From Haliea salexigens DSM 19537 (GTDB lineage: Bacteria; Pseudomonadota; Gammaproteobacteria; Pseudomonadales; Halieaceae): a stretch of 64,000 nucleotides of DNA. Below are positions 7,577-40,551 of the stretch, piece by piece. A program made the translations under genes and the position numbers. Below the pieces are notes generated by a model. It saw only the letters and a list, made by a program, of their open reading frames with translations, made no database searches and was not told the origin of the DNA. Where the stretch lies: the NCBI RefSeq assembly GCF_000423125.1, contig NZ_AUHJ01000011.1:62001-126000 (forward strand). The letters are read 5' to 3'. Within the stretch, counting starts at the first letter, position 1, and each line of letters starts with the position of its first letter.

Positions 7577-7661
7577 GATAAAGCAAGGGGTGGGATTATA
7601 AAGAAGAACCCACCGCAGTCACAGCCCCGAATGGAGCGATGATTGCGGTGGATGTGGCTCT

Positions 7662-8408
7662 CTAGGGGGCGGCAACAATATTCACTGCATCATAGAGGTT
7701 GGGCGAGCTGCAGTGTGACACATCGTCCATCGCGGCGTTGGCCCTGGCTATCCCGCCGCCGTTCATGTACGCCTCAAAGGCTTTGCCCAGTGCAGGATAG
7801 GATGGCCATGCGGCTACGTGGTAATAGTCAAATTCGGCATCACCACCGCCCAGAGATGGCGCAAACATCCAGCTCGCGCCGGGCGCCTCCATCTCCACCA
7901 TCATGTCACTGACCGTTGTGTGGCCGGCCATCGCGTCGGCCATGCTGCTGTCGTCGTCGAGGGAGCAGCGAGCAAACCAGACGACGCCATCACCGGGGCC
8001 TCCCTCGGGGGGCAGCACGGTATAGGACGCCATCAATCCGTGACTGCAGTCGAGGGCGTCGACATACGCCTGTGACACGTCTCCCGATTCGTTTACCCAC
8101 TTGTCCATCTGCGAGCCGAACTGCTCGGCGTTGGCGTATGCGCCGATAAAACCGACGTCGAAGGCTTCCTCTCCGGCACGGAACTGAGGAGTAATCATCC
8201 AGGCGTTATAGCCGCGGCTGTGTTTGGACGCCCACTTTTTCAGATCCTTGTTGGCGTTCTCGAGGTCGCCAAACCCCTTTCCCTCCTTGAAGGTGCAGGC
8301 ATAGAGTTCAACGGGTTGTGCGTTCATGGCGTTCTGGGCGAAACTCGGCGCGGCTGTGGCGCCGGCTAGGGCGAGCGCTGCTGTTATGGCATAAGTTACT
8401 GATTTCAT
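7662..8408 (-). CDS. Exported protein with two related half-domains, function unknown
   Basis: The 248-residue protein has a signal peptide (MKSVTYAITAALALA, cleavage near FAQ at residue 24). The ATG at 8408 is chosen because the 30 residues upstream lack signal character. The mature protein seems to hold two similar units: one from VELYACTF through FDVGFIGAYANAEQFG to the WV near residue 120, and one from VVWFARCS through FDYYHVAAWPSYPALG. Each starts with a strand containing Cys, has a Trp-centred strand, then a D-aromatic strand and helix, as in dimeric alpha/beta-barrel folds. No named family is recognised. Confidence 0.72.
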   Translation of the reverse strand: MKSVTYAITAALALAGATAAPSFAQNAMNAQPVELYACTFKEGKGFGDLENANKDLKKWASKHSRGYNAWMITPQFRAGEEAFDVGFIGAYANAEQFGSQMDKWVNESGDVSQAYVDALDCSHGLMASYTVLPPEGGPGDGVVWFARCSLDDDSSMADAMAGHTTVSDMMVEMEAPGASWMFAPSLGGGDAEFDYYHVAAWPSYPALGKAFEAYMNGGGIARANAAMDDVSHCSSPNLYDAVNIVAAP

Positions 8409-8548
8409 GGCACTATTTCCTGTAATTGTTATGAGGGCGATGCCAGTGAGACAGATATCGGCATGCGTTAAGCGTAGGTCATGAAGGGGGCGTGTCAATT
8501 TGCGGCTCGCGGCAGGACACGGTGGTGCTTGGTCGCAGCGTATTTTGC

Positions 8549-11567: not shown

Positions 11568-13409
11568 TCAGGACTTCTTGCGTGCCTCATCGAGGCGCTG
11601 TTTTTCCTTGAGCAACTCCCGGAGTTGCTGCTTGTCCGCTTCGCTCATGTCAGCGTAGTTGGTCGCTTTCAGTTTGTCGACCCGAGCCGACAGCTTGCTG
11701 CGCTGGGGCCGCTGTACCAGCGTCGCCAGGGTATCGGTGAACTGTTTTTCAATCCCTTCGCGCGGGATCAGGCGCTCCTCTCCCGCCAGCCTGCTCAGCA
11801 GTTCACCTTCGGGCGTACCGTACCAGTGGCCCAGCAGCATGGCGGTATTGGAGTCGGGGCGGCGCTGCAGCAGGTCCAGCAGCTCGCGCAGCAGCACGAT
11901 GTCGTCGCCTTCCAGCGCTGTCAGTGGTTCCAGTTCCACGCGCGGCGCGATATCCGGTTGGTGCAGAAGCAGGGCGATGGCGGCCTGGGCCAGGTTCGAA
12001 TAGCCCAGCGGCGCACGGCTGGTGGGGCTGCGCTGCCGCGGGCCCCGGTTCCCCGTCTCCCCGCTCGGCGGAGGCTCTTGCGGGGGCGCGCTGGAGGGCG
12101 GTGGCGGCGCCTCCAGATGCATCAGTTCGGCCACGGTGAGGCCGGTGCGCTCGGCGAGGGCGCGGAACATGAGTTGACGGAACACGCCGTCCGGGAGCTG
12201 GCGCAGCCAGGGAAGCGCGAGTTTGCTCAGGCGTGCGCGCCCTTCCAGAGTGGCCGTATCCAGACCTTCGCTCACCGCGTCAAACAGGAACGCCTCCAGC
12301 GGTGTGGCGCGCTTGACCAGCTCGCGGAAGGCCTCGCTGCCGAGCTTGCGCACCAGTGTGTCCGGGTCCTCGCCCTCATCCAGGAACAGGAAGCGCGCCT
12401 GACGGCCGTCTTCCATGCACGGCAGGACGGTCTCCAGTGCGCGCAGTGCCGCCTTGCGTCCTGCGGCATCGCCGTCGAAGCAGAACACCACTTCCGGTGT
12501 CAGCCGATACAGCCGCTCGAGGTGGGTCTGGCTGGTGGCGGTACCCAGAGTCGCTGTGGCCTGGGTGATATCGTGCTGCGCCAGCGCGATCACATCCATG
12601 TAGCCTTCCACCACCAGTACCCGCTCCAGCTTGCGGTTCGCCTGGCGCGCCTGGTAGAGCCCGTAGAGCTCGCGTCCCTTGGAGAAGACCGGGGTTTCGG
12701 GCGAGTTCAGGTACTTGGGCTTGTCGTCGCCGAGCACCCGGCCGCCGAAGGCGATAATGCGGCCACGCTGATCCCGGATGGGAAACATGACGCGGTCCCG
12801 AAAGCGGTCATAGGTACGCCCGGCCTCGTTCTGCACCAGCATGCCGGCCTCGAGCAGCAGTTTGCGCTGCTCCTCGCTGTTGCCCAGGGCCTGCAGGAGG
12901 TTATCCCAGCCCGGCGGGGCGAAGCCCAAGTCAAAGCGCTTGGCAATCTCACCGGTAAGGCCGCGCTGCTTGAGGTAGGTGACGGCGCGGCTGGCGTCGG
13001 GGTGGGTGCGCAGCTGCTTCTGGTAGTAGCGTGCGGCCTGTTCCAGCAGCGCATACAGTGGCTTTCCGGTCTCCTCGCGGCTCGGTTGCGAGCTGCCCGG
13101 GCGTGACTGCTCCCGAGGTACTTCCAGGCCCAGGCTGCCGGCCAGCGTCTCCACCGCCTGGGGGAAGTCCACATTCTCGTAATCCATGACAAAGCCGAGG
13201 GCATTGCCGCCGGCACCGCAGCCAAAACAGTAGTAGAACTGCTTGTCGGGGTTGACGCTGAAAGAGGGGGTTTTTTCCTCGTGAAAGGGGCAGCGGGCGC
13301 TGTAGTTCTTGCCGGTTTTCTTCAGTTTCACCCGGCGGTCTATCACCTCCACGATATCCACGCGGTCGAGCAGGTCGTCGAGGAACTTTTGTGGAATGCG
13401 TCCGGCCAT
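11568..13409 (-). CDS. dnaG: DNA primase DnaG
   Basis: The 613-residue protein starts MAGRIPQKFLDDLLDRVDIVEV; an upstream in-frame start adds 14 unconserved residues. The N-terminal CHC2 zinc finger is visible (CPFH and CFGC about 18 residues apart, with KTPSFSVNPDKQFYY between). The Toprim catalytic core has VLVVEGYMDVIAL and CFDGDAAGRKAA. A Pro-rich linker near residues 435-460 joins the C-terminal helicase-binding domain. It synthesises RNA primers for replication. The gene lies between yqeY and rpoD. Confidence 0.98.
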   Translation of the reverse strand: MAGRIPQKFLDDLLDRVDIVEVIDRRVKLKKTGKNYSARCPFHEEKTPSFSVNPDKQFYYCFGCGAGGNALGFVMDYENVDFPQAVETLAGSLGLEVPREQSRPGSSQPSREETGKPLYALLEQAARYYQKQLRTHPDASRAVTYLKQRGLTGEIAKRFDLGFAPPGWDNLLQALGNSEEQRKLLLEAGMLVQNEAGRTYDRFRDRVMFPIRDQRGRIIAFGGRVLGDDKPKYLNSPETPVFSKGRELYGLYQARQANRKLERVLVVEGYMDVIALAQHDITQATATLGTATSQTHLERLYRLTPEVVFCFDGDAAGRKAALRALETVLPCMEDGRQARFLFLDEGEDPDTLVRKLGSEAFRELVKRATPLEAFLFDAVSEGLDTATLEGRARLSKLALPWLRQLPDGVFRQLMFRALAERTGLTVAELMHLEAPPPPSSAPPQEPPPSGETGNRGPRQRSPTSRAPLGYSNLAQAAIALLLHQPDIAPRVELEPLTALEGDDIVLLRELLDLLQRRPDSNTAMLLGHWYGTPEGELLSRLAGEERLIPREGIEKQFTDTLATLVQRPQRSKLSARVDKLKATNYADMSEADKQQLRELLKEKQRLDEARKKS

Positions 13410-13541
13410 CAGAGGGTCAGCAGTGCTCAGTGTAGCCGGCCATTGAAGCACGGTGGCAGAGGCTTGTCAGCGGTGTGCAGGCGGACGGGCCGCAATGCGG
13501 ACGCTAGTTTCGGGTATGGGCCGGGTCGGGGTGGCAACCGC

Positions 13542-13997
13542 TCAGGCGGTCAGGCGCGCCTTGACCAGCTTGCTGACGGCGCCGACATCAGCGCGGCCCT
13601 GCAGTTGTGGCTTGAGCTCTGCCATCACGGGCCCCATGGCCTGCATGCCGCTGCCCTCGGCGCGGGCGATGGCGGCATCGATCAACTCGTCGAGCTCGGC
13701 TTCGCTCAGCTGGCTGGGCAGGAATTCCTGGATAACAGCAATTTCCCGCTCTTCCTGGGCGGCGAGCTCGGGGCGCTCGGCTGCTTGATACTGCTGCGCC
13801 GAGTCGCGGCGCTGCTTGATCATTTTGTCGAGAACGGCGAGGGCGCGGGCGTCATCGATTTCGATGCGCTCGTCAACTTCTATACGCTTGAACTCCGACT
13901 GTATCAGCCGGATAGTGCCCAGGCGCTCCTTGTCACGTGCCTTCATGGCCGCTTTCATGGCGGCCTTGACGGTATCAGTGAGTGTGGCGCTGCTCAT
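13542..13997 (-). CDS. yqeY: GatB/YqeY domain protein
   Basis: The 151-residue all-helical protein has the YqeY pattern: KAAMKAAMKARDKERLGTIRLI at the start, a central MIKQRRDSAQQY helix, REIAVIQEFLPSQLSEAEL, and the ending MGPVMAELKPQLQGRADVGAVSKLV. It resembles the tail domain of GatB, which handles tRNA in the amidotransferase, although stand-alone YqeY has no settled function. Its position between rpsU and dnaG is the arrangement known in Pseudomonas. Confidence 0.93.
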   Translation of the reverse strand: MSSATLTDTVKAAMKAAMKARDKERLGTIRLIQSEFKRIEVDERIEIDDARALAVLDKMIKQRRDSAQQYQAAERPELAAQEEREIAVIQEFLPSQLSEAELDELIDAAIARAEGSGMQAMGPVMAELKPQLQGRADVGAVSKLVKARLTA

Positions 13998-14031
13998 GGG
14001 CGAAGGTGCCTGGGTGCTGCCGGGGAGGGGA

Positions 14032-14247
14032 TCAATACAAGCGGACGCGCTTGCGGTTTTCCCGTGACAGCTTCTTCAGGTGGCGCTTTACAGCAGCGGC
14101 TGCAGCGCGCTTGCGGGTGGTTGTGGGCTTCTCGTAGTGCTCACGCTTGCGCACTTCAGCCAGTACGCCAGCTTTTTCGCAGGAGCGCTTGAAACGGCGC
14201 AGGGCGACGTCAAAGGGCTCGTTTTCCTTCAGTTTGATATGCGGCAT
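14032..14247 (-). CDS. rpsU: 30S ribosomal protein S21
   Basis: The 71-residue basic protein begins [20 protein letters not shown] and ends [11 protein letters not shown], the canonical S21. I chose the ATG at 14247 since it gives exactly the family length; the in-frame extension upstream is not conserved. S21 helps the 30S subunit base-pair with mRNA. It is first in the rpsU-yqeY-dnaG-rpoD unit, with a strong promoter at 14322-14350, and is divergent from tsaD. Confidence 0.98.
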
Positions 14248-14321
14248 TAACTCTTTACCTGTTTCGTCTGCTCGTGGCCTGCACGCCCGTTCCGGGGGCG
14301 TTGAGCCGTAAAAGGTCGCGC

Positions 14322-14350
14322 ATTCTATACCCATGTGACGGTATTTGCAA
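14322..14350 (-). promoter_or_regulatory. Sigma-70 promoter for the rpsU-yqeY-dnaG-rpoD operon
   Basis: On the minus strand there is TTGCAA (-35, 14345-14350), a 17-base spacer, and TAGAAT (-10, 14322-14327). The spacing is ideal and the position gives an rpsU leader of roughly 65-70 bases. The leader runs through GC-rich sequence with CCCCCGG and a complementary run that may fold. Confidence 0.65.
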
Positions 14351-14486
14351 AGCCCGGTGAGGCGGGTTTCGGGCGGTTTGGCAGGCCCCGGGGTTGCCAA
14401 CCTGCGAGCCACGCCGGGTGCAGTGCGCCTCGCGCCCGCGCCGGCAACCCGCTATTATCGCACCCTGCCAAAAACAGGGAGCGGCA

Positions 14487-20728: not shown

Positions 20729-21450
20729 GCGGGCAGCCGATGCTGGAGCTGGTGGGGGTGTCGCACCACTACATGGCCCGCAAAAACAGTTTTGATCACG
20801 GACTGCACCATGTACTGGACAATGTTTCGCTGTGCGTGATGCCAGGGGATACCCTGGGGATTGTCGGTCGCAACGGTGCCGGCAAGACCACCATGCTGCG
20901 CCTGATGGCCGGCATTATCGAGCCTCGCCAGGGGCTGATCCGCCGCCGTGCGGGGGCCAGCTGCGCACTGCTCAGCCTGGGGCTGGGCTTCCAGGATTCC
21001 CTCTCTGGTCGCGACAATGCCCTGCTTTCCGCCATGCTGCAGGGTGTGAGCAAACGCGATGCTCTGGCCAGCCTCGACGAGATTCGCGAGTTTACCGAAC
21101 TGGGTGACTCCTTCGAGGAGCCGGTGAAAACCTATTCCTCGGGTATGCGCGCCCGGTTGGGGTTTGCCAGTGGCCTGCTCACGCGCGTGGATATCCTGCT
21201 GATTGACGAAGTGTTGAGCGTGGGGGATGCGCAGTTTCGCGACAAGGCGCTGGGCGCCATGCAGCAGCGCCTGGGCGGCGAGCAGACTGTCGTGTTTGTC
21301 TCGCACGCCGAAGGTCAGCTGAAGGCGCTTTGCGACCGGGCGGTGTGGATTGAACAGGGGCAACTGCGCGCTGAGGGTGCCCCTGAAGAGGTTATTGCGC
21401 AGTATCGGCAGCCGGTGGGGGCTGGCGGCGGTTCTGCACGGCAGCCATAA
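20725..21450 (+). CDS. ABC transporter ATPase for polysaccharide export (Wzt/KpsT-like)
   Basis: The 241-residue ATPase has Walker A (GRNGAGKTT), the signature YSSGMRARLGFA, Walker B (DILLIDEVLSVGD) and the H-loop (FVSHAE). It lacks the extra C-terminal carbohydrate-binding domain of long Wzt proteins, so it resembles KpsT or short RfbB types. It should power export of a finished lipid-linked glycan. Its last 59 bases overlap the end of the convergent wzz-like gene. Confidence 0.9.
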   Translation: MSGQPMLELVGVSHHYMARKNSFDHGLHHVLDNVSLCVMPGDTLGIVGRNGAGKTTMLRLMAGIIEPRQGLIRRRAGASCALLSLGLGFQDSLSGRDNALLSAMLQGVSKRDALASLDEIREFTELGDSFEEPVKTYSSGMRARLGFASGLLTRVDILLIDEVLSVGDAQFRDKALGAMQQRLGGEQTVVFVSHAEGQLKALCDRAVWIEQGQLRAEGAPEEVIAQYRQPVGAGGGSARQP

Positions 21451-22723
21451 CCAAAGCTATTAATATGCCGAGCATTGTGCCCGCAATGAGTGCAATCGCC
21501 ACCGTCAGTGCCTTTTTGGGGCGGATTGGCGTTTTGCGCGCAACAGCTTCTTTGTCCACTCTGGCCATTTTTACATCGGCGTAGCTTGCCGCAAGGAAAT
21601 TACGCAACTGGGTGATTTCCGCGCGCAGAGCACCGGTATTCTCGGCTAGTGCCTCGTAGTTTTCTCGGCCTTGCAGCAGCTCAATGCGGCGATTTTTCTC
21701 CAGCAGATCCAGCTGCTCCTGCAGATCTCGCAGGCGTGGCTCCATGTGAGCATCCGACGTTCTTTGTTCCAGGGCGGCAAGTTCGGCCTCCAGCATACGG
21801 CTGCCGCGCAGATAGAGGGGGTCCCGTGTGCCGTCTGAAAGCTCCGCCCGGAAAGCCACAGATTCATTGCCGCCGTCGCGGTTTGACATCATGTGCATTG
21901 TCACGGGGTCCTCAATTCCGAGGCTCTGAGCAATGGCCAAGGCCTCTTGCAGCTCGGTGATTTTGTCCAGTCGCAATTGACGGGTTTTACGTGTTAAGGC
22001 GGCAATCTGGTCTTGCAGGTCCCTCCGGCGCAGTTCATCCGCCTCTTGTAGTTGCACGACCGTGTCCTGATCGTTCCTCTTAAGCTCGTCAGCGCCGAGG
22101 ACAATTCGGGATTCCAACACCCGGATGCGGGTCTCCATGACTACCCGCAAGTCATCCAGCACGCCTGCACGCGCTCTACTCCGTGCGGCGGTCGCAAGCG
22201 CATTGGAGATATCGGCGGCGAACTGGTTGTCAGCGTGTTTAAATGTAATAGTTGCTGTGGTTTCGGCTAAAACATCATTTTTGCCCGAACCGTCAACCTT
22301 GGTCGAAGAAGCCGGCAGAAAGTTGAGCAGAAAGTATTGTTCAGCTAGCGCATCGCTACGAGCGTTTGAATTGAGAAAGCGCTCCTTGAATGCATCAAAA
22401 ACCTGCCGTTGCGTGCTTATGGCCCGCGCTTCAAAGATTACGCGGCCAAAGGCTTCTTCAGGGCTAAGTGTCAGCTGACCGGTTTCGTTGATGGCTGCGA
22501 GCTGCGAGGCGAGAGGGGGGCGCAGGCGGGCGGAGGATTCGTACACAGGGGTGGTAAGCAAAAGATAGGCTGCCGCGAGCGCGAGCGCCACCGCGATAAC
22601 GGCCAGTACCACCCACTTGCGCCGCCACAGGCCCACGACGAGCTCGAACAGGTCGATTTCGTCATCGGCCCACGCGGGCGGCGGTAGCTGCGATAGCGAA
22701 GGATGGTTGCCGGGTTGCGTCAT
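21392..22723 (-). CDS. wzz: Wzz-type polysaccharide chain-length determinant
   Basis: The 443-residue protein is a polysaccharide co-polymerase. After a Pro-rich N-terminal tail comes DEIDLFELVVGLWRRKW and a first membrane segment near residues 35-55, a long periplasmic part with extended coiled coil (about residues 170-390), and a C-terminal membrane segment preceded by the Pro-rich PIRPKK motif. There is no tyrosine kinase domain. It should set polymer length with Wzy. It overlaps wecA by 4 bases upstream. Confidence 0.88.
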   Translation of the reverse strand: MTQPGNHPSLSQLPPPAWADDEIDLFELVVGLWRRKWVVLAVIAVALALAAAYLLLTTPVYESSARLRPPLASQLAAINETGQLTLSPEEAFGRVIFEARAISTQRQVFDAFKERFLNSNARSDALAEQYFLLNFLPASSTKVDGSGKNDVLAETTATITFKHADNQFAADISNALATAARSRARAGVLDDLRVVMETRIRVLESRIVLGADELKRNDQDTVVQLQEADELRRRDLQDQIAALTRKTRQLRLDKITELQEALAIAQSLGIEDPVTMHMMSNRDGGNESVAFRAELSDGTRDPLYLRGSRMLEAELAALEQRTSDAHMEPRLRDLQEQLDLLEKNRRIELLQGRENYEALAENTGALRAEITQLRNFLAASYADVKMARVDKEAVARKTPIRPKKALTVAIALIAGTMLGILIALVMAAVQNRRQPPPAADTAQ

Positions 22724-23838
22724 GCGTTGTCCGTGGGGTTGAGTTCAATGGTGACCTTGTTTATTGAAACCTGCTGCGTCCGTTTGCTCGCTACATACCA
22801 AGCCTGACTCATGACGATAGAGTACAGGATAAAGGCACCCACCAGAATGCTGAACTGGTAGGATTCCGGCGTGTTCGCCCTTGCCAGCATCAGGCCGAGA
22901 AGAGGGATGGAAGCACCCACGCTACAGATCAATAGCAATGCTCGCTTTTCCGACAATCCCAGCGCCCGCAGCAGGTGGTGGATGTGAGTATTATCCGCTC
23001 GGATCGGGGATTTGCCGCTCTGTAGCCGGCGCAGTGTGGTAAAGGCCATGTCGAACAAGGGCAGGCCGAGGAGGTACACGGCGGTTATCGGCTGCAGATA
23101 GCGAACCTGGCCGATCTGGGCGGACGTAACGGATAGGGTCAGGGCTACAACGATGAAGCCCAGCAGCTTGGAACCCGCGTCCCCCAGGAAGGATTTCGGG
23201 ATGAACGGCGCCAGCCCCAGGTTGGAGATGAGGAACGCCACCAATGCGGCGCTCACAACAATCGTAATCAGGCCAGGCGGCAATCCGCTGAACAAGTGGA
23301 AAGCAAAAATCGTGATCAGTACGATTATTCCCAGCAGGCCGTCCATGCCGTCTAGCATGTTGTAGGCGTTGATCACAACGAAGATGATCAGCACGGTGAA
23401 GGGGTAGCTGAGCCAAGCGCTGAGTTTGACCTTGCCCAGCCCCGCGAAATCGCCCAGGTTGGACAACCGCAGCTCCAGGCTTTCGATCAAAAACAGCGCC
23501 ACGCCGATTTCGGCCAAGACCCTGGTAAGCACGCTCAGATTGTAGCGATCATCCAGTATTCCCAGTACCACCAGCATGCCCCCGGCCGCCAGGAAAACAT
23601 AAATTATGTCGGTTCTCAGCCCCTCGTTGCCCCCCTGGGTCTGCCCCCAAAGGAGAGTGGCCACCAGCAGTGCCAGGTAGATGGCGATGCCACCGACCAG
23701 CGGGATGGAGCCTTCGTGCTGTTTGCGGTGATTGGGAGCATCTACTAATCCCAGGCGCGTGGCAATGGGGCTCAGGGCCCAGATGCAGAACAGCGTCAGG
23801 CAGAAGGCTAGCGTGGCTTGCATTAGCGTTGGTGACAT
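22720..23838 (-). CDS. wecA: Undecaprenyl-phosphate sugar-1-phosphate transferase, WecA family
   Basis: The 372-residue protein has about 11 membrane segments. Motifs of the PNPT family are visible: GGIAIYLALL, LGILDDRYNLS (Asp pair), NAYNMLDGMDGL, FLGDAGSKLLG and NTHIHHLLRALG (His loop). WecA transfers GlcNAc-1-phosphate to undecaprenyl phosphate, the first step of O-antigen or enterobacterial-type polymer synthesis; the exact sugar is not provable here. It is translationally coupled to the downstream wzz-like gene (ATGA). Confidence 0.9.
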   Translation of the reverse strand: MSPTLMQATLAFCLTLFCIWALSPIATRLGLVDAPNHRKQHEGSIPLVGGIAIYLALLVATLLWGQTQGGNEGLRTDIIYVFLAAGGMLVVLGILDDRYNLSVLTRVLAEIGVALFLIESLELRLSNLGDFAGLGKVKLSAWLSYPFTVLIIFVVINAYNMLDGMDGLLGIIVLITIFAFHLFSGLPPGLITIVVSAALVAFLISNLGLAPFIPKSFLGDAGSKLLGFIVVALTLSVTSAQIGQVRYLQPITAVYLLGLPLFDMAFTTLRRLQSGKSPIRADNTHIHHLLRALGLSEKRALLLICSVGASIPLLGLMLARANTPESYQFSILVGAFILYSIVMSQAWYVASKRTQQVSINKVTIELNPTDNA

Positions 23839-26110: not shown

Positions 26111-27343
26111 ATGAGCTTTCGTGCTCTACTCAACAATGCATTCTGGTCTGCCTTCAGCCATTTGCTGCAACGTGGCAGCTTAATGCTATGTAGTATTATT
26201 CTCGCTCGGAGTCTGACGACTGAAGGGTTTGCTTCTTACAGTTACTTTCAGATGACAGTAGTAATGTTATCCACTTATGCCGCGATGGGCTTTGGAGTTG
26301 CCGCCTCGCGCTTTTTCGCTGAGATTGGCGCGGACGAGCAGAGCTCGGTTTTGCCGCCGGTGGGGTTGCTCGTAGCAATTTCAACTTTCATGTCCATAGC
26401 TGCGTTCTTTGCGATTTTGATGCTACCTCGCGCGTTGATCGATTCCGGCTTACCGGTTCCTCATTGGTTAATCGCTATCGGGGTTGCAGTCACTGTATTG
26501 GGAATCGTCCCGGGGGGGGGGATTCTAGGATTAGAGAAATACCGACAGGCCAGTCTGGTTTCGTTATTTTCAGCGTTCGCTATGCTTTCTTTTACAACTT
26601 TAGCTTCAATTCAACAAGAGCCGACGCTTGGAATGTTGGGAATTGTTCTCGGGCTGTTAATTCAAATTGTTGGCCAGTATATCGTGATCTTCCAAACCAC
26701 CGGCATATCAGTTTTCGCGAGCACTTGCAGGTGGTCTTTGGCTGAAATACATAAAATCCTTTGGTTCGCTGGCCCGATGTTTTTGGTCTCGGTTTTGAGT
26801 GGGTCAATCGCCTGGATCGTTGGACGGCTGATTTTTGCCGCTAGTGGAGAAATAGAGTTTGCCCTTTACTCTATTGCCCTACAGTGGTTCGCATTAGGGT
26901 TGTTCCTGCCAGGCATGGTATCCAAAGTGCTACTTCCTCGCCTAGTGCGCATCGGGGAAAGTGATTTCCGACAGGTGGTGCGAAGGGGCACAGCAATGGC
27001 TGTGGTTCCGGCCGTGCTTTTCGCCTTCTTCGGATTGTTGTTCGCGCCATGGCTTATTCGCCTCTACGGCAGCCAGTACAGCAGCTTTGCTTATGTGATT
27101 CCCGCATTTTTGGCAGTCGCCGCTCTCAATGCACCCATTAACACTATCGGAAACGCAATTGTAGCCAAGAATGGCCAGCTACATTGGTTGTGGTTCAGTT
27201 GCATCTCATTTATCTCACTAATGGCTTGTTTGATCATTGCTCCTGCTACAACCACGTTCTGGGCGATATTCGCACACGGTGTCGCAGCTTTAACGATGCT
27301 CACCGTGGTTCTGATCCACGCGAAACGAAAAAGATTAATTTGA
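26111..27343 (+). CDS. wzx: Wzx-type lipid-linked oligosaccharide flippase
   Basis: The 410-residue polytopic protein has about 12 hydrophobic segments. Its start NNAFWSAFSHLLQRGSLML and ILARSLTTEGFASYSYF fit the MATE-like polysaccharide translocase family. It would flip undecaprenyl-linked repeat units to the periplasm. The gene is clearly more AT-rich than its neighbours, suggesting transfer. A run of 10 G (26512-26521) encodes PGGG within the frame and could be slippery. No strong RBS is visible. Confidence 0.88.
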   Translation: MSFRALLNNAFWSAFSHLLQRGSLMLCSIILARSLTTEGFASYSYFQMTVVMLSTYAAMGFGVAASRFFAEIGADEQSSVLPPVGLLVAISTFMSIAAFFAILMLPRALIDSGLPVPHWLIAIGVAVTVLGIVPGGGILGLEKYRQASLVSLFSAFAMLSFTTLASIQQEPTLGMLGIVLGLLIQIVGQYIVIFQTTGISVFASTCRWSLAEIHKILWFAGPMFLVSVLSGSIAWIVGRLIFAASGEIEFALYSIALQWFALGLFLPGMVSKVLLPRLVRIGESDFRQVVRRGTAMAVVPAVLFAFFGLLFAPWLIRLYGSQYSSFAYVIPAFLAVAALNAPINTIGNAIVAKNGQLHWLWFSCISFISLMACLIIAPATTTFWAIFAHGVAALTMLTVVLIHAKRKRLI

Positions 27344-32368: not shown

Positions 32369-33291
32369 AAACTCCGTTCAAACAGCCCTTGGCTAATGAC
32401 AGCGTTAAGGTACTGCCCACCGAAGGTGCTGTCCCAGTCGCGGTGATCATGATTTCTTTGAACGAAGCCCACAACATGCAAGCCGTACTGGACAACTTGA
32501 AAGGTTGGGCCCAGGAAGTTTTTCTGGTCGACAGCTATAGTGTTGACGACACGGTCGACATCGCACTGGCCAATGGTGTGCATGTGGTTCAGCGCAAGTT
32601 TCGAGGGTTTGGCGACCAGTGGAACTTTGCGCTTGAAAACCTTCCTGTTCAGGCACCCTGGGTTATGAAGCTGGATCCGGACGAGCGGCTTACCGATAAA
32701 TTAAAGCAGAGTGTCGGAGCCGCAACTGCTCGCAATGCCGCTACCGGGATTTCTTTCAGTCGACGACTCTGGTTCATGGGTAAACCACTGCCTATTCGGC
32801 AGGAAATCGTAAGGGTCTGGAAAGCAGGGCGTTGTCGCTTCACCGATGTATCGGTCAATGAGCACCCGCTAGTTGATGGGGATGTTTGTCATGTTGAGGG
32901 TGACCTGGAGCATCACGATAGCCCGGATTTGCATCACTGGGTTGATAAGCAGAACCACTATTCAACTGCAGAGGCAGTCGCTCGTATGAATCTGGCACTG
33001 GCTGCACCGGCCAAGTTGTTTGGCTCGCATCTTGAGCGGAGAATGTGGATTAAAAAACACTTCGACAAGTTCCCCATGCGCTTTTTTGCGGTATTCCTTT
33101 TCTATTATTGTTACAAAGGGCTGTTTAGAGCGGGTTGGGTTGGCTATACCTGGTCTAAGCTCCGTGCTCATGTGTACTGGATGCGCTATATCAAGTATCG
33201 GGAGATGCTAATAACCAGTAGAGCTTCTACCTCTTCAACTTCAGATCCCTCTGCCAAAGGCCAGCCTGACCTCCGGGTTCCACAATACTGA
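32365..33291 (+). CDS. GT2-family glycosyltransferase (WaaE/KdtX-like)
   Basis: The product is about 308 residues. I prefer the TTG at 32365: ggaggt lies 8 bases upstream and TTGA overlaps the FkbM stop. The in-frame GTG at 32356 sits almost on that RBS. Motifs: VAVIMISLNEAHNM, EVFLVDSYSVDDTVDIA, DQWNFALENL and MKLDPDERL (a DxD variant), with EHHDSPDLHHWVDKQNHYS later. This set resembles LPS-core WaaE-type transferases. A hydrophobic stretch near the C-terminus may contact the membrane. Confidence 0.88.
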   Translation: MKTPFKQPLANDSVKVLPTEGAVPVAVIMISLNEAHNMQAVLDNLKGWAQEVFLVDSYSVDDTVDIALANGVHVVQRKFRGFGDQWNFALENLPVQAPWVMKLDPDERLTDKLKQSVGAATARNAATGISFSRRLWFMGKPLPIRQEIVRVWKAGRCRFTDVSVNEHPLVDGDVCHVEGDLEHHDSPDLHHWVDKQNHYSTAEAVARMNLALAAPAKLFGSHLERRMWIKKHFDKFPMRFFAVFLFYYCYKGLFRAGWVGYTWSKLRAHVYWMRYIKYREMLITSRASTSSTSDPSAKGQPDLRVPQY

Positions 33292-35465
33292 TGAAACAAA
33301 TCCTCCAAAGCCTCAAAGATGGCACCACCCAGCTCGCCGATGTGCCCACTCCTGGCCCGCGCCGTGGTGAGGTGCTGATTCAAACCGCCCGCACCCTGGT
33401 CTCCGCTGGCACCGAGCGCATGCTGGTAGATTTCGGCAAGGCCAACCTGCTCAAAAAGGTGCGCCAGCAGCCGGACAAGGTGCGCATGGTGCTGGACAAG
33501 GTACGCACCGACGGCCTGGCCACCACGCTGGAGGCGGTGCAAAACAAGCTGGATCAGCCCCTGCCCCTGGGTTACTGCAACGTAGGCCAGGTGTTGGATA
33601 GCGGTGGTGAATCGGGCTTTGTCCCCGGTGACCGGGTGGCGAGCAACGGCCACCATGCTGAGGTGGTGGCCGTGCCGCGCAACCTGTGTGCACGTATTCC
33701 CGATGCCGTTAGCGACGAACAGGCGGCTTTTACCGTGCTGGCCGCCATTGGTTTGCAGGGTGTGCGCTTGGTCAATCCCACCCTGGGGGAGTGTGTGGTG
33801 GTGACCGGCCTGGGCCTGATCGGCCTGCTCACGGTGCAGCTGCTGCGCGCCCAGGGCTGCCGGGTGCTGGGCATTGACCTGGATCCGGCGCGCCTGGCCT
33901 TGGCCCGGCAGTTCGGTGCAGTGGTGGTCAATCCCGCTGCGGGCGAGGATGTGCTGGCTGCAGCCACGGCCTTCTCCCGCGGTCGCGGGGTGGACGCGGT
34001 GATCATTACCGCCTCCACCAAGAGCAGCGAACCCGTAAGCCAGGCCGCCACCATGTGCCGGCAGCGCGGTCGCATCGTGTTGGTGGGAATGACAGGGCTG
34101 GAGCTGTCCCGGGCGGATTTCTACGAAAAAGAGCTGACCTTCCAGGTGAGTTGCTCCTACGGCCCTGGCCGCTACGACTCGGCCTACGAGGAGTGCGGCC
34201 AGGATTACCCGGTGGGCTTTGTACGCTGGACAGAGCAGCGCAATTTCGAGGCTGTGCTGGACCTGCTGGCCTCGGGTGCTCTGGATGTGGCCCCCTTGAT
34301 CAGCCATCGCTTTGCCTTGGAGCAGGCGGTGGCAGCTTATGAGTTGTTGTCGTCGGGCGAGCCTTCGCTGGGGATTCTGCTGGAGTACCCCGGTAGTGTT
34401 GCAGAGCTTGGCGACCAGGGTGCCGCGCCACGAGCGGCGGGTGGCCGGGTGGTGCCGCTGTGTGTTGCTGACACCATTGTTTCTGATTCAGTTGTCAAGC
34501 CCGCCCAGGGCGATGTGAACGTGGGCTTTCTCGGCGCCGGCAACTACGCGGGTCGGGTGCTGATTCCGGCCTTCAAGGCCGCCGGCAGCACTTTGTACAA
34601 CGTGGTCAGCAGCGGCGGCGTGAGTTCGGTGTACTACGGCAAGAAGCACGGCTTCCGCCAGGCCTCTACCGACGGCGCTGCCATGCTGGCGGATTCCGGG
34701 GTGAATACCGTGGTTATCGCCACCCGGCACAACGCTCATGCCCGGCAGGTGCTGCAGGCCCTGCAGGCTGGCAAGCATGTCTTCTGCGAAAAGCCCTTGT
34801 GCCTCACCCTTTCGGAGCTGCAGGACATAGAGGCCGAGGCTGCCCAGCGCCCGGAGCAGTTGCTGATGCTGGGCTTCAACCGCCGCTTTGCCCCGCAGGT
34901 GGTGGCTATAAAAGGCCTGCTGGACACCGTGGCAGAGCCCAAGAGCCTGGTGATGACCGTCAACGCAGGGGACATCCCGGCGGACCATTGGGCGCAGGAC
35001 CCGGAGATTGGCGGCGGCCGCATCATTGGCGAGGCCTGCCACTTCATCGACCTGCTGCGGCACCTGGTGGGCGCGCCCATCACCGCCCACCACAGCGTGG
35101 CCCTTGGCCGCCACCCGGCCTTGGCCGTGCGTGATGACAAGGTCACTATCACCCTGACCTTTGCCGATGGCTCGGTGGGCACCATCCACTACCTGGCCAA
35201 TGGCCACAAGGCCTTCCCCAAGGAGCGCCTGGAGGTGTTCTGCGCCGGCGGGGTGCTACAGCTGGACAACTTCCGCAAGCTGCACGGCTGGGGTTGGCCT
35301 GGGTTTCGTTCGCTGAATCTGTGGCGGCAGGACAAGGGGCAGGGCGCCTGTGCCCGCGCCTTTGTGGATGCGGTGCGCGAGGGTGGCCCGGCGCCGATTT
35401 CCCGAGAGGAGATTTTTGAGGTGTCGCGGGTGGTGCTGGAGGTGGCGGAGGGGGTGCGGGGGTAG
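33291..35465 (+). CDS. Bi-domain oxidoreductase: MDR alcohol dehydrogenase fused to Gfo/Idh/MocA
   Basis: The 724-residue protein joins two dehydrogenases. Residues ~1-360 are medium-chain dehydrogenase-like (GEVLIQTARTLVSAGTE, PLGYCNVGQV, Rossmann TGLGLIGLLTVQLL). Residues ~405-724 are Gfo/Idh/MocA-like (VNVGFLGAGNYAGRVLIPAFK, HVFCEKPLCLT, GGGRIIGEACHFIDLLRHL). This fusion is known from EPS clusters, usually beside heparinase-like genes, and is thought to modify a nucleotide sugar or glycan; the substrate is unproven. Its start shares a base with the previous stop (TGATG). Confidence 0.9.
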   Translation: MKQILQSLKDGTTQLADVPTPGPRRGEVLIQTARTLVSAGTERMLVDFGKANLLKKVRQQPDKVRMVLDKVRTDGLATTLEAVQNKLDQPLPLGYCNVGQVLDSGGESGFVPGDRVASNGHHAEVVAVPRNLCARIPDAVSDEQAAFTVLAAIGLQGVRLVNPTLGECVVVTGLGLIGLLTVQLLRAQGCRVLGIDLDPARLALARQFGAVVVNPAAGEDVLAAATAFSRGRGVDAVIITASTKSSEPVSQAATMCRQRGRIVLVGMTGLELSRADFYEKELTFQVSCSYGPGRYDSAYEECGQDYPVGFVRWTEQRNFEAVLDLLASGALDVAPLISHRFALEQAVAAYELLSSGEPSLGILLEYPGSVAELGDQGAAPRAAGGRVVPLCVADTIVSDSVVKPAQGDVNVGFLGAGNYAGRVLIPAFKAAGSTLYNVVSSGGVSSVYYGKKHGFRQASTDGAAMLADSGVNTVVIATRHNAHARQVLQALQAGKHVFCEKPLCLTLSELQDIEAEAAQRPEQLLMLGFNRRFAPQVVAIKGLLDTVAEPKSLVMTVNAGDIPADHWAQDPEIGGGRIIGEACHFIDLLRHLVGAPITAHHSVALGRHPALAVRDDKVTITLTFADGSVGTIHYLANGHKAFPKERLEVFCAGGVLQLDNFRKLHGWGWPGFRSLNLWRQDKGQGACARAFVDAVREGGPAPISREEIFEVSRVVLEVAEGVRG

Positions 35466-35578
35466 GCTTCTGATCGCAGCCGCGGGCGGTCGTTTTTGAT
35501 GTTGGTCTGTGCTATCGCGTTGAGCTATATTAGCCGGCTGGGCTGATTCTTGTCAGAGTGTATGGGAGAAGTGTGCAA

Positions 35579-35842
35579 ATGGCTGACTGCAAAGGAAAAA
35601 AATCAGTGGTGAAGGTGCGGAAATCGAGCCGCAAGGGCGCGTTTGATGACAACAGAAAGCTTCTGCATTTCGCCAAAGTATCGTCTCGCAAAGCCATAGA
35701 GCGCGCGTTTGCTTCCGGCGTCGCTGTCTACTACGTGAAGGACGGCAACCTTATCAAGGAAGAGCCCAACCACGAAGCGCAGATAATCAAAGAAGCTGGG
35801 AAGAAGCCTTTCGATCTTCGAGAGTACCTGTGCCACGGCTGA
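35579..35842 (+). CDS. Small protein, putative antitoxin of the adjacent zeta-type toxin
   Basis: The 87-residue protein has a strongly basic N-terminus (MADCKGKKSVVKVRKSSRKG) and a helix-strand rest (LHFAKVSSRKAIERAFASG, VAVYYVKDGNLIKEEP). I do not recognise the family. The antitoxin call comes from context: it directly precedes, and overlaps by 13 bases, a zeta-toxin-like kinase. The start at 35579 is preferred over 35558 because gggagaag lies between the two. Composition is AT-richer than the flanking dehydrogenase. Confidence 0.65.
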   Translation: MADCKGKKSVVKVRKSSRKGAFDDNRKLLHFAKVSSRKAIERAFASGVAVYYVKDGNLIKEEPNHEAQIIKEAGKKPFDLREYLCHG

Positions 35843-36519
35843 GGTTGATAGCGGGACCGAATGGCGCAGGAAAAACCACACTGCTTCGCACTCTGGTAGA
35901 TGAGGGCGTCCCAGTTGGCCAATACATCAACCCTGATGACATCGCCCGCCATATCGATCTCTCGGCAACACTAAGTCGCTCCCTAAAAAAGGTTGACGAC
36001 AATGCAGAGTGGCCGTCAATAACCCCAACTCTTCGTGACTACTTTTCAGTTTTTCTTGCTCAGACTATAGCCATAGGCTTACGCAAGGACTGGTTGGGCT
36101 ACAACCTGTCTTTGACTTATGAATCTGTGATGAGCCATGCAAGCCACCTGGATTTTGTGGATCAAGCAATTCAGGCAGACTTCGAGCCCTATTTGTATTA
36201 CATCTGCACTTCGGATCCGGATCTTCACATGGGGCGTGTAAAGCAGCGCGTTGCGCAGGGTGGGCACGATGTGCCGGAGGACAGCATAGTGACTCGCTAT
36301 GAGCGAAGCCTGAAATTTTTGGAGCAAATGGCTCGCAAATGCAAAAGGGCTTACTTTTTCGATAACTCGGGCAAGGAGAAACTGCACTTCGCAGAGATCA
36401 CTCCCGATGGCTATCTGGATATTTTTGAAAAGCAATTCGATAAAGCACAGCCGACTTGGTTTGTTGAACACTTGCTGACAAAGTGGTCGAAAGAGCAAGT
36501 GCGCCTCTCCTCCTTGTAA
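35830..36519 (+). CDS. Zeta-toxin-family P-loop kinase
   Basis: The 229-residue protein starts at a GTG inside the end of the small gene. It has Walker A (AGPNGAGKTTLL), the NPDDIARHI segment typical of zeta toxins, YESVMSHASHLDFVDQA, and the late VKQRVAQGGHDVPEDSIVTRYERS block with a DNSG ending, a near-canonical zeta pattern. Characterised zeta toxins phosphorylate UDP-N-acetyl sugars and block peptidoglycan synthesis. The usual FETT segment reads LTYESV. Its TAA shares a base with the heparinase-like start (TAATG). Confidence 0.85.
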   Translation: MPRLRLIAGPNGAGKTTLLRTLVDEGVPVGQYINPDDIARHIDLSATLSRSLKKVDDNAEWPSITPTLRDYFSVFLAQTIAIGLRKDWLGYNLSLTYESVMSHASHLDFVDQAIQADFEPYLYYICTSDPDLHMGRVKQRVAQGGHDVPEDSIVTRYERSLKFLEQMARKCKRAYFFDNSGKEKLHFAEITPDGYLDIFEKQFDKAQPTWFVEHLLTKWSKEQVRLSSL

Positions 36520-38234
36520 TGTCCTTAAACATCGCGTTCCGCTACTGGCACACCTTGCGCCACCTCAAACCCGTGCAGTTTTACGGCAGGCTGTGGTTTC
36601 GCTTCTACCGCCCGCAGCCCGACCTGAGACCCGCGCCGCCGCTGCGCGAGCCAGGTGCTGGCTGGCAGCTGCCGGCCTGTCGCGAGCCCAGCCTGCGCGG
36701 GCCTGAGCTCTTTGTTTTCCTGGGCGAGGAGGGGTGCCTGGCGGACGTCGGCTGGAGCGGTGATGCCCGCAGCAAGCTGTGGCGCTACAACCAGCACTAT
36801 TTTGATGACTTGAATGCCGAAGGTGCCGGGGATCGAAGCGAGTGGCACCAGGCCTTGCTGGCCCGTTGGGTGGCAGAGAACCCAACGGGCCAGGGCGACG
36901 GCTGGGAGCCTTACCCGAGCTCTCTGCGTATCGTCAATTGGGTCAAGTGGGCGCTGGCGGGCAATCAATTGCCGGCCAAGTGTGTTGCCAGCCTGGCGGT
37001 ACAGGCGCGCTGGCTGGCACGCCGCCTGGAGATCCACCTGCTCGGCAATCACCTATTCGCTAACGCCAAGGCACTGGTATTTGCCGGCTGCTTTTTTCAG
37101 GGTGTGGAGGCCGAGCGCTGGCTGCGCACGGGTTTTCGCATTCTGGCCCGCGAGGTGCCGGAACAGATCCTCGCGGACGGCGGTCACTTCGAGCGCAGCA
37201 CGATGTACCACGCCCTGGCGCTGGAGGACATGCTCGATCTTCTCAACCTGCTGCGCTGCCTTGATCAAGCGTCGTCTTCAGCTTCCCCCCTCGAAAACAG
37301 GGCCCTGCACAGTCAGCTCGGCGATTTTCTGCAGGCCTGGCCGGCGCTGATCCAGAAGATGGTCAGTTGGCTGCAGGCCATGTGCCACCCGGATGGAGAG
37401 ATCGCCTTTTTTAATGACGCGGCCTTTGCTATTGCACCGCCCACTTCGTCCTTGTTGGCCTACGTCGACCGCCTGGGTCTTGGTGCGACATCGGCATCGC
37501 CGGATGGTCTTGGCGCCCCGCCGGCCTGGCTGGCCGAATCCGGTTATATTCGCCTTTGCAACGCAAGCGCCGTGTTGCTGTTCGACACAGCCCCCGTGGG
37601 ACCGGATTACCTGCCCGGCCACGGCCACGCTGACACCCTCAGTGTCGAATTGAGCCTGTTCGGGCAGCGAGTATTGGTAAATTCCGGCACCTCCGAGTAT
37701 GGCCTCGGCCCCGAGCGGCTGCGCCAGCGTGGCACCGCCGCACACAATACGGTGGTGGTGAACGGTGAGGATTCCTCGGAAGTCTGGAGCGGCTTTCGCG
37801 TGGCTCGGCGCGCCCGGGTCACTGCTATAGAGGCGCAGCTGCAGGGGCCGGTACAGATGGCAAGCGCCAGCCACGACGGCTATACGTGCCTGCCGAACCG
37901 GGTGGTGGTCGGTCGCGCCATTCGTCTGAAAGTGGAGGCGCTGTTGATTGACGACGAACCCCTGCCTGCCAGCGCGAAGGGCGGTTGTGTCAACGCTGCT
38001 GCCCATTTTCATCTGCACCCGGCGGTGGTCGCCAGCCAGCCCGGCGCTGATGGCCTGGAGCTGCGCCTGCCCAACGGCGAGCGTGTGCGCATGCAGTTTG
38101 ACGGGGCGGCCAGTGTCTCGATAGACGAATCCACCTGGCACCCGCGCTTTGGTGTGGCAGAGCCCAATCGGCGTATTAGCGTGGCGCTGGCATCAGCCCG
38201 TCTGCAAACCCGCATTTCATGGAGTCCGCAGTGA
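36519..38234 (+). CDS. Heparinase II/III (alginate lyase-like) family protein
   Basis: The 571-residue protein has an all-helical toroid half (KLWRYNQHYFDDLNA, WEPYPSSLRIVNWVKWAL, LEIHLLGNHLFANAKAL, ERSTMYHALALEDMLDL) and a beta-sandwich half starting about residue 330 (LPGHGHADTLSVELSLFGQRVLVNSGTSEYG, RGTAAHNTVVVNGEDSSEVW). Catalytic-type residues of the family (His in GHGHAD, Tyr in STMYH) are present. No signal peptide is seen, so it may act in the cytosol, perhaps on lipid-linked glycan. The ATG is coupled to the zeta stop. Confidence 0.9.
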   Translation: MSLNIAFRYWHTLRHLKPVQFYGRLWFRFYRPQPDLRPAPPLREPGAGWQLPACREPSLRGPELFVFLGEEGCLADVGWSGDARSKLWRYNQHYFDDLNAEGAGDRSEWHQALLARWVAENPTGQGDGWEPYPSSLRIVNWVKWALAGNQLPAKCVASLAVQARWLARRLEIHLLGNHLFANAKALVFAGCFFQGVEAERWLRTGFRILAREVPEQILADGGHFERSTMYHALALEDMLDLLNLLRCLDQASSSASPLENRALHSQLGDFLQAWPALIQKMVSWLQAMCHPDGEIAFFNDAAFAIAPPTSSLLAYVDRLGLGATSASPDGLGAPPAWLAESGYIRLCNASAVLLFDTAPVGPDYLPGHGHADTLSVELSLFGQRVLVNSGTSEYGLGPERLRQRGTAAHNTVVVNGEDSSEVWSGFRVARRARVTAIEAQLQGPVQMASASHDGYTCLPNRVVVGRAIRLKVEALLIDDEPLPASAKGGCVNAAAHFHLHPAVVASQPGADGLELRLPNGERVRMQFDGAASVSIDESTWHPRFGVAEPNRRISVALASARLQTRISWSPQ

Positions 38235-39456: not shown

Positions 39457-40551
39457 ATGCTGATCGACATCATCGCGGGCGCACGCCCAAACTTCATGAA
39501 AATCGCCCCCATCATCCACGCCCTACAGGCTCGGCAGGAGCAGGGCGGGTCGCTGCGTTTCCGCCTGGTGCACACGGGTCAGCATTATGATGCGCGCATG
39601 TCCGGGGATTTCTTCACCCAGCTGGGCATCCCCGAGCCGGATGTGAACTTGGAGGTGGGCTCGGGCACCCAGGCGGAGCAAACCGGTGCCATTATGTCCC
39701 GCTATGAAAAGCTGTTGCTGGAAGCCCCCGGCAGTCTGTGTCTAGTGGTGGGCGATGTAACCTCCACCATGGCCTGCGCCATCGCCGCCCAGAAACTCTG
39801 CATTCCCGTGGCCCATGTTGAAGCCGGCATCCGCTCCGGTGACTGGAGCATGCCGGAGGAGATCAACCGTATGGTCACCGATAGCATCAGCAACTGGTTC
39901 TTCACCACCAGTGAAGTGGCCAACAACAACCTGCGTGCGGCGGGCGTTATGGAGAAGCGCATCTGCTTTGTAGGCAACACCATGATTGATACGCTGCTGG
40001 CCAACCTGCCGCGTTTGCAGAAGCCTGAATTCTTCGACTCCCTTGGGCTGCAGGCTGGTGGCTATGTTGTGACCACGCTGCACCGCCCCGCGAACGTGGA
40101 CAAGGGCGACGGTTTCGCCCGCCTGCTGACGGCCATTGCCGAGTCTGCACGGGGGCTGCCTGTGGTGTTCCCGGTGCACCCGCGCACGGCCAAAACCCTG
40201 CGCGAGCTGGGCGAGGTGCCAGCAAATTTTCAGCTGGTAGAACCGCAGCCCTACCTGGAATTCAACTATCTGGTGAAGAATGCCCTGGCGGTCATCACCG
40301 ATTCTGGCGGTATCACCGAGGAAACTACGGTCATGGGTATTCCCTGCCTGACCCTCCGCGACAACACTGAACGCCCTGAAACCATCACCCTTGGCACCAA
40401 CGAGCTGATTGGCACCGACCCTGCCGCCATAAGACCAGCCATGGACAGCTTGTTTGACGGCCAGTGGAAGCAGGGCAGCATTCCGCCACTGTGGGATGGC
40501 AAGACCGGGGAACGCATCGTGGCGCACCTGGAGCGGCTGCTGAGTGCGTGA
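39457..40551 (+). CDS. wecB: UDP-N-acetylglucosamine 2-epimerase (non-hydrolysing)
   Basis: The 364-residue protein has the epimerase pattern: IIAGARPNFMKIAPI, VHTGQHYDARMSGDFF, VVGDVTSTMACAIAAQ, VAHVEAGIRSGDWSMPEEINR, VTTLHRPANVD, VFPVHPRTAKTL, and ITDSGGITEETTVMGIPCLTLRDNTERPET. It interconverts UDP-GlcNAc and UDP-ManNAc. No WecC-type dehydrogenase or FnlA/FnlB genes are in the window, so UDP-ManNAc itself or a product made elsewhere is the likely donor. It ends the forward operon. Confidence 0.95.
   Translation: MLIDIIAGARPNFMKIAPIIHALQARQEQGGSLRFRLVHTGQHYDARMSGDFFTQLGIPEPDVNLEVGSGTQAEQTGAIMSRYEKLLLEAPGSLCLVVGDVTSTMACAIAAQKLCIPVAHVEAGIRSGDWSMPEEINRMVTDSISNWFFTTSEVANNNLRAAGVMEKRICFVGNTMIDTLLANLPRLQKPEFFDSLGLQAGGYVVTTLHRPANVDKGDGFARLLTAIAESARGLPVVFPVHPRTAKTLRELGEVPANFQLVEPQPYLEFNYLVKNALAVITDSGGITEETTVMGIPCLTLRDNTERPETITLGTNELIGTDPAAIRPAMDSLFDGQWKQGSIPPLWDGKTGERIVAHLERLLSA

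What the first reader, a model, noticed from the sequence alone, without database searches (positions are those of the whole stretch)
35579..36519. Zeta-toxin-like module translationally coupled inside a polysaccharide operon
A basic 87-residue protein and a zeta-family kinase lie between the bi-domain oxidoreductase and the heparinase-like gene. The kinase overlaps the small gene by 13 bases, and its TAA shares a base with the heparinase ATG. Known zeta toxins phosphorylate UDP-GlcNAc-type sugars, the substrate of WecB and probably WecA in this locus. The module may be an addiction element stabilising the island. A more novel option is that the kinase acts on nucleotide-sugar supply or modifies a sugar in the pathway. 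The usual FETT segment is altered to LTYESV.
Basis: partly seen in the sequence, partly recalled or inferred. Interest (0 to 1): 0.6.

Follow-up and report, generated by a model that had tools for sequence, protein, structure and literature searches.

The report
Zeta-kinase toxin-antitoxin inserted in polysaccharide operon
A two-gene module that looks like a bacterial toxin (a zeta-type sugar/nucleotide kinase) and its small antidote has jumped into a sugar-polymer gene cluster; its few close relatives mostly sit inside such clusters too, at different places, which looks more like a mobile addiction module that prefers these loci than a step of the sugar pathway.

Summary
In detail: an 87-aa basic ORF (35579-35842) overlaps a GTG-started kinase (35830-36519) by 13 bp, and the kinase TAA shares its last A with the heparinase ATG. 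The kinase is a zeta-toxin-type P-loop phosphotransferase (Pfam Zeta_toxin above cutoff; model closest to PezT, zeta and AvrRxo1). All catalytic positions are intact, and YESVMSH is a subfamily motif, not a lesion. The pair as a unit, with the same 13-19 bp overlap, recurs in Marinobacter, Halopseudomonas, Halomonas, Vreelandella, another Pseudomonadales genome and an Acidobacteriota MAG. The small protein belongs to an unnamed family also found upstream of sister zeta kinases, including plasmid-borne ones. In the window the pair is an insertion: same-family genomes have oxidoreductase and heparinase directly adjacent, and the ~1.05-kb insert is about 50-53% GC against about 65%. Eight of ten subfamily loci lie in O-antigen/EPS clusters (0 of 24 control zeta loci), at about five different sites; the two outgroup copies do not. 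In three decayed copies the small gene is intact and the kinase broken. Best reading: a non-epsilon zeta toxin-antitoxin cassette that spreads among polysaccharide loci. Toxicity and substrate are untested; a pathway role is unlikely but not excluded.

The parts
35466..35578 (+). Leader brought in with the module (53% GC); its last ~45-60 nt resemble the leaders of the Marinobacter and Halopseudomonas copies
   Evidence: Absent in empty-site relatives L126-L128; leader alignment; no confident sigma-70 promoter found on this strand
35579..35842 (+). Small basic partner, 87 aa, putative antitoxin of an unnamed family (helix plus three-stranded beta predicted)
   Evidence: Homologues upstream of every intact subfamily kinase; hhalign 96.8% probability, E 2.4e-10 to partners of sister zeta kinases; no Pfam/NCBIfam/PADLOC hit; AlphaFold pLDDT 74
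35830..36519 (+). Zeta-toxin-type kinase, 229 aa, putative toxin; P-loop G9-x-x-G-x-G-K15, N34-x-D36, E98, R136, R140, R156
   Evidence: Pfam Zeta_toxin 27.2 bits over cutoff 22.3; Foldseek best PezT 2p5t, zeta 1gvn/3q8x, AvrRxo1 4z8t; residues invariant in 31/31
35466..36518 (+). Whole inserted segment (~1.05 kb, low GC) between oxidoreductase stop and heparinase start
   Evidence: Oxidoreductase-heparinase adjacent without insert in L126 (TGATG), L127 and L128; GC 53/52/50% against 65/64%
33291..35465 (+). Bi-domain oxidoreductase, upstream host gene (not part of the module)
   Evidence: ADH_zinc_N + GFO_IDH_MocA
36519..38234 (+). Heparinase II/III-like gene, downstream host gene (not part of the module)
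   Evidence: Hepar_II_III_C 9e-53

Best explanation
The two genes are a type II-like toxin-antitoxin cassette of the zeta superfamily that does not use an epsilon/PezA-type antitoxin. The kinase, when free, would use ATP to phosphorylate a small metabolite (D36 as the base; a UDP-sugar is the likeliest class, other substrates such as NAD possible) and stop growth. The 87-aa protein, made first and translationally coupled through the 13-bp overlap, would bind and silence it. The cassette inserted with its own leader between the oxidoreductase and heparinase genes of an EPS/O-antigen operon, in the direction of transcription and leaving both neighbours intact. Related cassettes have entered other O-antigen/EPS loci. 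There it most likely acts as an addiction or stabilising element of a frequently exchanged island, not as a pathway enzyme. Shown here: pair, overlap, homology, insertion, locus preference. Inferred: toxicity, neutralisation, substrate, stabilising role.
For: Pair conserved as a unit with 13-19 bp overlap in seven intact loci of two phyla. Kinase fold and catalytic residues of zeta toxins (residue roles from PMC4938570, PMC6362051, PMC5923241). Partner homologous to small proteins upstream of sister zeta kinases, some on plasmids. Nearly all zeta-type kinases surveyed have a small upstream ORF (95/105). Empty site and low GC. Sporadic distribution (2/124 Marinobacter-group, 1/120 own family, 3/249 Pseudomonadaceae-group genomes). 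Three decayed loci keep the small gene and lose the kinase, as reported for avrRxo1:arc1.
Against: No experiment. The 3/3 kinase-only decay is not significant alone, because the kinase is 2.6 times longer (chance about 0.38). The small protein has no known fold match and no recognisable DNA-binding domain. The AlphaFold model of the kinase rests on five sequences, with TM about 0.5 to zeta. The locus preference suggests something beyond random hitch-hiking.
Confidence: 0.72

Rival explanations
1. The kinase is a functional part of polysaccharide metabolism: it phosphorylates a nucleotide sugar or sugar to regulate precursor supply or decorate the polymer, and the small protein is its regulator.
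For: Eight of ten subfamily loci in O-antigen/EPS clusters against 0/24 control zeta loci (conservative 5/7 sites p=1.2e-4). Neighbours include WecB, GlmS, RmlA/B, PseB and Ugd. Co-oriented with the adjacent glycan genes in the glycan loci read. A gonococcal zeta toxin phosphorylates several UDP-sugars.
Against: Different neighbours and different glycan pathways at each site; absent from same-family genomes with the same oxidoreductase-heparinase genes; outgroup copies in a defence island and next to unrelated genes; rare and decaying.
Confidence: 0.1
2. The module is an anti-phage or locus-guarding system: the kinase is released when phage infection or loss of the glycan locus upsets the complex, giving abortive growth arrest.
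For: O-antigen loci determine phage receptors (general knowledge); the G462 copy lies beside prokaryotic viperin and type I R-M genes.
Against: No PADLOC family match for either protein beyond generic P-loop hits; only one of ten loci is in a recognisable defence island.
Confidence: 0.13
3. Neutral remnant: a hitch-hiking gene pair carried along when O-antigen segments are exchanged, with no present function.
For: Rare, patchy, and in three of ten loci the kinase is broken.
Against: Both frames are intact here, catalytic residues are invariant and the overlap is kept across phyla, so selection has acted on the pair.
Confidence: 0.05

Closest known systems
epsilon/zeta (pSM19035) and PezAT
   Same: Toxin fold: best Foldseek matches of the predicted kinase (PezT 2p5t 3e-7, zeta 1gvn 1e-6, 3q8x). 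Walker lysine, catalytic Asp, Arg positions and the zeta E100-equivalent are present (alignment by motif).
   Different: Partner is not epsilon/PezA-like (no family hit, different predicted fold); kinase only ~15% identical, 229 aa; UNAG-binding residues cannot be matched with confidence.
ng_epsilon1/ng_zeta1 of Neisseria gonorrhoeae (PMC5923241)
   Same: Proteobacterial zeta kinase with an epsilon-unrelated antitoxin; phosphorylates several UDP-sugars used for peptidoglycan and LPS.
   Different: ng_zeta1 is topologically rewired and has an extra OB domain; no sequence match of our partner to solved antitoxins.
AvrRxo1:Arc1 (PMC4938570)
   Same: Zeta-like kinase with a small non-epsilon partner; low-GC module with varying flanks; pseudogenes keep the partner; structural match 4z8t.
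   Different: Toxin gene comes first there, is ~420 aa and type III secreted; here the partner is upstream and the kinase is 229 aa.
Rv0366c-Rv0367c 'non-canonical PezAT' (PMC6362051)
   Same: Zeta kinase with conserved catalytic Asp36 and poorly conserved UNAG-binding residues.
   Different: Rv0367c was assigned an N-terminal RHH domain; our partner shows helix plus beta strands and no RHH.
Plasmid and chromosomal 'zeta toxin family protein' modules of Pseudomonas/Azotobacter (e.g. pAcX50d Achr_RS21140-21145)
   Same: Sister kinase clade with a homologous small upstream partner.
   Different: ~35% identical, with a longer insert after the catalytic Asp, and not in glycan loci in the controls examined.

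Membership tests
Zeta_toxin / zeta-PezT kinase superfamily | Sequence profile match above curated cutoff | tested here: met
   PF06414 27.2 bits against 22.3; AAA_33 30.1 against 27
Zeta_toxin / zeta-PezT kinase superfamily | Zeta-like fold | tested here: met
   Foldseek top hits PezT, zeta, AvrRxo1, probability 1.00, TM about 0.5, model pLDDT 79
Zeta_toxin / zeta-PezT kinase superfamily | P-loop Lys, catalytic Asp, substrate-side Glu and arginines | tested here: met
   K15, D36, E98, R136, R140, R156 invariant in 31 family members; equivalence to zeta K46/D67/E100/R158 by motif, not by solved structure
epsilon/zeta or PezAT TA system | Epsilon- or PezA-type antitoxin | tested here: not met
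   No family match; no sequence or fold match to solved antitoxins
Type II toxin-antitoxin system (general) | Small partner gene upstream, overlapping and co-conserved with the toxin gene | tested here: met
   Same order and 13-19 bp overlap in seven intact loci
Type II toxin-antitoxin system (general) | Kinase toxic alone and neutralised by the partner | not testable with these tools
   Needs expression experiments
UDP-GlcNAc kinase activity | Phosphorylates UDP-GlcNAc or related UDP-sugar | not testable with these tools
   Catalytic residues kept; specificity residues not assignable from the model
Polysaccharide pathway enzyme | Fixed linkage to one glycan pathway across genomes | tested here: not met
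   Linked to glycan loci as a class (8/10) but to different genes and pathways; absent from same-operon relatives
Known anti-phage defence system (PADLOC) | Specific PADLOC model match | tested here: not met
   Only generic P-loop hits

The most novel reading that the evidence does not exclude
A lineage of zeta toxin-antitoxin modules is dedicated to O-antigen/EPS loci: its kinase acts on a nucleotide sugar of the host polysaccharide pathways, so that toxin state is wired to precursor supply or to possession of the locus, making these islands self-guarding or addictive.
Probability: 0.17. Interest if true: 0.72.

Novelty: new variant of a known kind. Interest (0 to 1): 0.42.

Why it matters
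O-antigen and EPS loci are among the most often exchanged regions of bacterial genomes, and why some variants persist is unclear. A zeta-type toxin-antitoxin lineage that enters these loci repeatedly would be a concrete, testable mechanism for their stabilisation, and would add an uncharacterised antitoxin family and a new substrate question to the zeta kinases.

Tried and rejected
Viral contigs searched with the kinase alignment: no relative. Plasmids searched with the small protein and with the pair DNA: no match; only ~35% identical kinases on plasmids. Phage records: four distant matches only. Solved-structure searches by sequence gave only P-loop noise for the kinase and nothing for the small protein. 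Small-protein fold search gave no significant hit. PHROGs gave nothing useful. A promoter for the module was not identified: the scan found one site, on the minus strand, at background level. 'FETT altered, perhaps inactive' was rejected. Coupling to the heparinase as a functional link was rejected. Two genome searches failed for use of a locus as centre. Papers linking zeta toxins to O-antigen or EPS loci: none found in the held library with the terms used.

Full report
WHAT IS THERE. The described anatomy is exact. The small ORF runs from ATG 35579 to TGA 35842 (87 aa), the kinase from GTG 35830 to TAA 36519 (229 aa); they overlap by 13 bp, and the kinase stop shares its last A with the heparinase ATG. 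The upstream gene is an ADH-GFO/IDH/MocA fusion and the downstream gene a heparinase II/III-like protein. The window cluster also holds Wzz (21392-22723), a WecA-type GT4 (22720-23838), a flippase (26111-27343) and a WecB-type epimerase (39457-40551).

THE KINASE. It passes the Pfam cutoffs for Zeta_toxin and AAA_33. An AlphaFold model from five homologues (pLDDT 79, pTM 0.73) matches PezT, zeta and AvrRxo1 best among solved structures, although TM-scores are only about 0.5. In an alignment of 31 zeta-type kinases, G9, N11, G12, G14, K15, N34, D36, E98, R136, R140, G145, H146, R156, N179 and W210 are invariant. Published work assigns these motif positions to ATP binding (Lys46 of zeta), the catalytic base (Asp67) and substrate or phosphate contacts (Glu100, Arg158); the equivalences here rest on motifs. 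The 'altered FETT' is a lineage motif (YESVMSH) whose glutamate is retained.

THE PARTNER. No library names the small protein. It is homologous (hhalign 96.8%, E 2.4e-10) to the small upstream partners of a sister clade of zeta kinases that includes plasmid modules in Azotobacter and Pseudomonas. Partners of the other zeta groups are unrelated. The predicted fold is one long helix plus three strands and a short C-terminal helix, at modest confidence, without a match among solved structures. Of 105 distinct zeta-type kinases examined, 95 have a small ORF ending within 45 nt of the kinase start, so a small upstream partner is the rule in this superfamily (some of these ORFs may be chance).

THE PAIR ELSEWHERE. 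The same two genes, same order, with a 13- or 19-bp overlap, occur in Marinobacter persicus (L061), Halopseudomonas yangmingensis (L062), a second Halopseudomonas-group genome (G1147, L156), Halomonas salicampi (L063), a further Pseudomonadales genome (G462, L066) and an Acidobacteriota MAG (L064). Three more loci are decayed: Vreelandella zhuhanensis (L065; kinase cut after about residue 97 by a TnpB/OrfB-bearing element), Marinobacter-group G821 (L122; residues 1 to about 109 deleted) and G1183 (L157; residues 1 to about 169 deleted). In all three the small gene stays open. This matches the reported pattern for avrRxo1:arc1, but with three cases and a kinase 2.6 times longer it is not significant alone. 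The seven intact kinases form a supported clade (99/98), with the window copy among the Marinobacter/Halopseudomonas ones although the host belongs to another family. The subfamily is rare: 2/124 genomes of the Marinobacter-group genus, 1/120 of the window's family, 3/249 of the Pseudomonadaceae group, and no new one in 399 genomes of the phylum. The genus names of G-handles are inferred from identity with named contigs (G820 and L061, G1068 and L062 share contig lengths).

INSERTION. In three same-family genomes the oxidoreductase and heparinase genes are adjacent without the pair: L126 with TGATG, L127 with TGAAATG, L128 with a gap of some tens of bases. In the window the ~1,053 bp between them are 53% (leader), 52% (small gene) and 50% (kinase) GC, against 65% and 64% in the flanking genes. 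The pair is also lower in GC than its surroundings in all six other intact loci. About 45-60 nt of leader are recognisably shared with Marinobacter and Halopseudomonas, so the unit probably carried its own leader. The stop/start overlap with heparinase belongs to this insertion.

LOCUS PREFERENCE. Reading the neighbours, backed in part by HMM hits: M. persicus and G821, Wzz-like - beta-CASP MBL - pair, with Wzx further on in M. persicus; H. yangmingensis, Wzz-like - beta-CASP MBL - pair - GlmS - flippase - PseB and on; G1183, NusG/RfaH-like - pair remnant - Ugd - RmlB - RmlA; G1147, WcaJ-type - pair - WecB - Ugd; H. salicampi, RmlB - pair - RmlA - RmlC; V. zhuhanensis, Ugd upstream of the pair. 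That is 8/10 loci counting the window. In 24 control loci of other zeta kinases the same probe set found none (also at E 1e-4 and leaving out probes from the locus's own site; M. persicus then scores zero and rests on its Wzx Pfam hit and a by-eye Wzz). The probes came from the subfamily loci, so the comparison favours the result; collapsing shared sites to five of seven gives p=1.2e-4. The exceptions are G462, whose pair follows prokaryotic viperin and type I R-M genes, and the Acidobacteriota copy beside a large carboxylase-like gene.

INTERPRETATION. The weight of evidence favours a zeta-type toxin-antitoxin cassette with a non-epsilon partner, spreading by insertion, with a striking but unexplained preference for polysaccharide loci. 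These are highly exchanged regions, so a stabilising or hitch-hiking role is the simplest account. A role in nucleotide-sugar supply is not excluded, since a gonococcal zeta toxin phosphorylates several UDP-sugars, but varying neighbours and absence from otherwise equal operons speak against a dedicated pathway step. Toxicity, neutralisation and substrate are untested.

Noticed in passing
L072:15252-15863 (own genome, contig C25): A second, unrelated-clade zeta-type kinase (203 aa) with a 150-aa upstream partner, next to several tyrosine recombinase-like genes: a separate probable TA module on a mobile element.
   Followed up: partly
L066:1264-7134 and 7627-8507: The G462 copy of the pair directly follows a prokaryotic viperin and type I R-M genes, i.e. 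lies in a defence island.
   Followed up: partly
L061:6324-7700 and 13041-14441: Two similar beta-CASP metallo-hydrolase genes flank the pair and a cassette of uncharacterised genes inside the Marinobacter O-antigen locus; the same gene precedes the pair in Halopseudomonas.
   Followed up: no
window:25638-25973 and L061:12569-12904: Similar ~111-aa winged-helix, MarR-like regulators occur in both polysaccharide loci.
   Followed up: no
L002-L154 survey: Small upstream partners of zeta-type kinases fall into several unrelated sequence classes, suggesting repeated partner exchange.
   Followed up: partly
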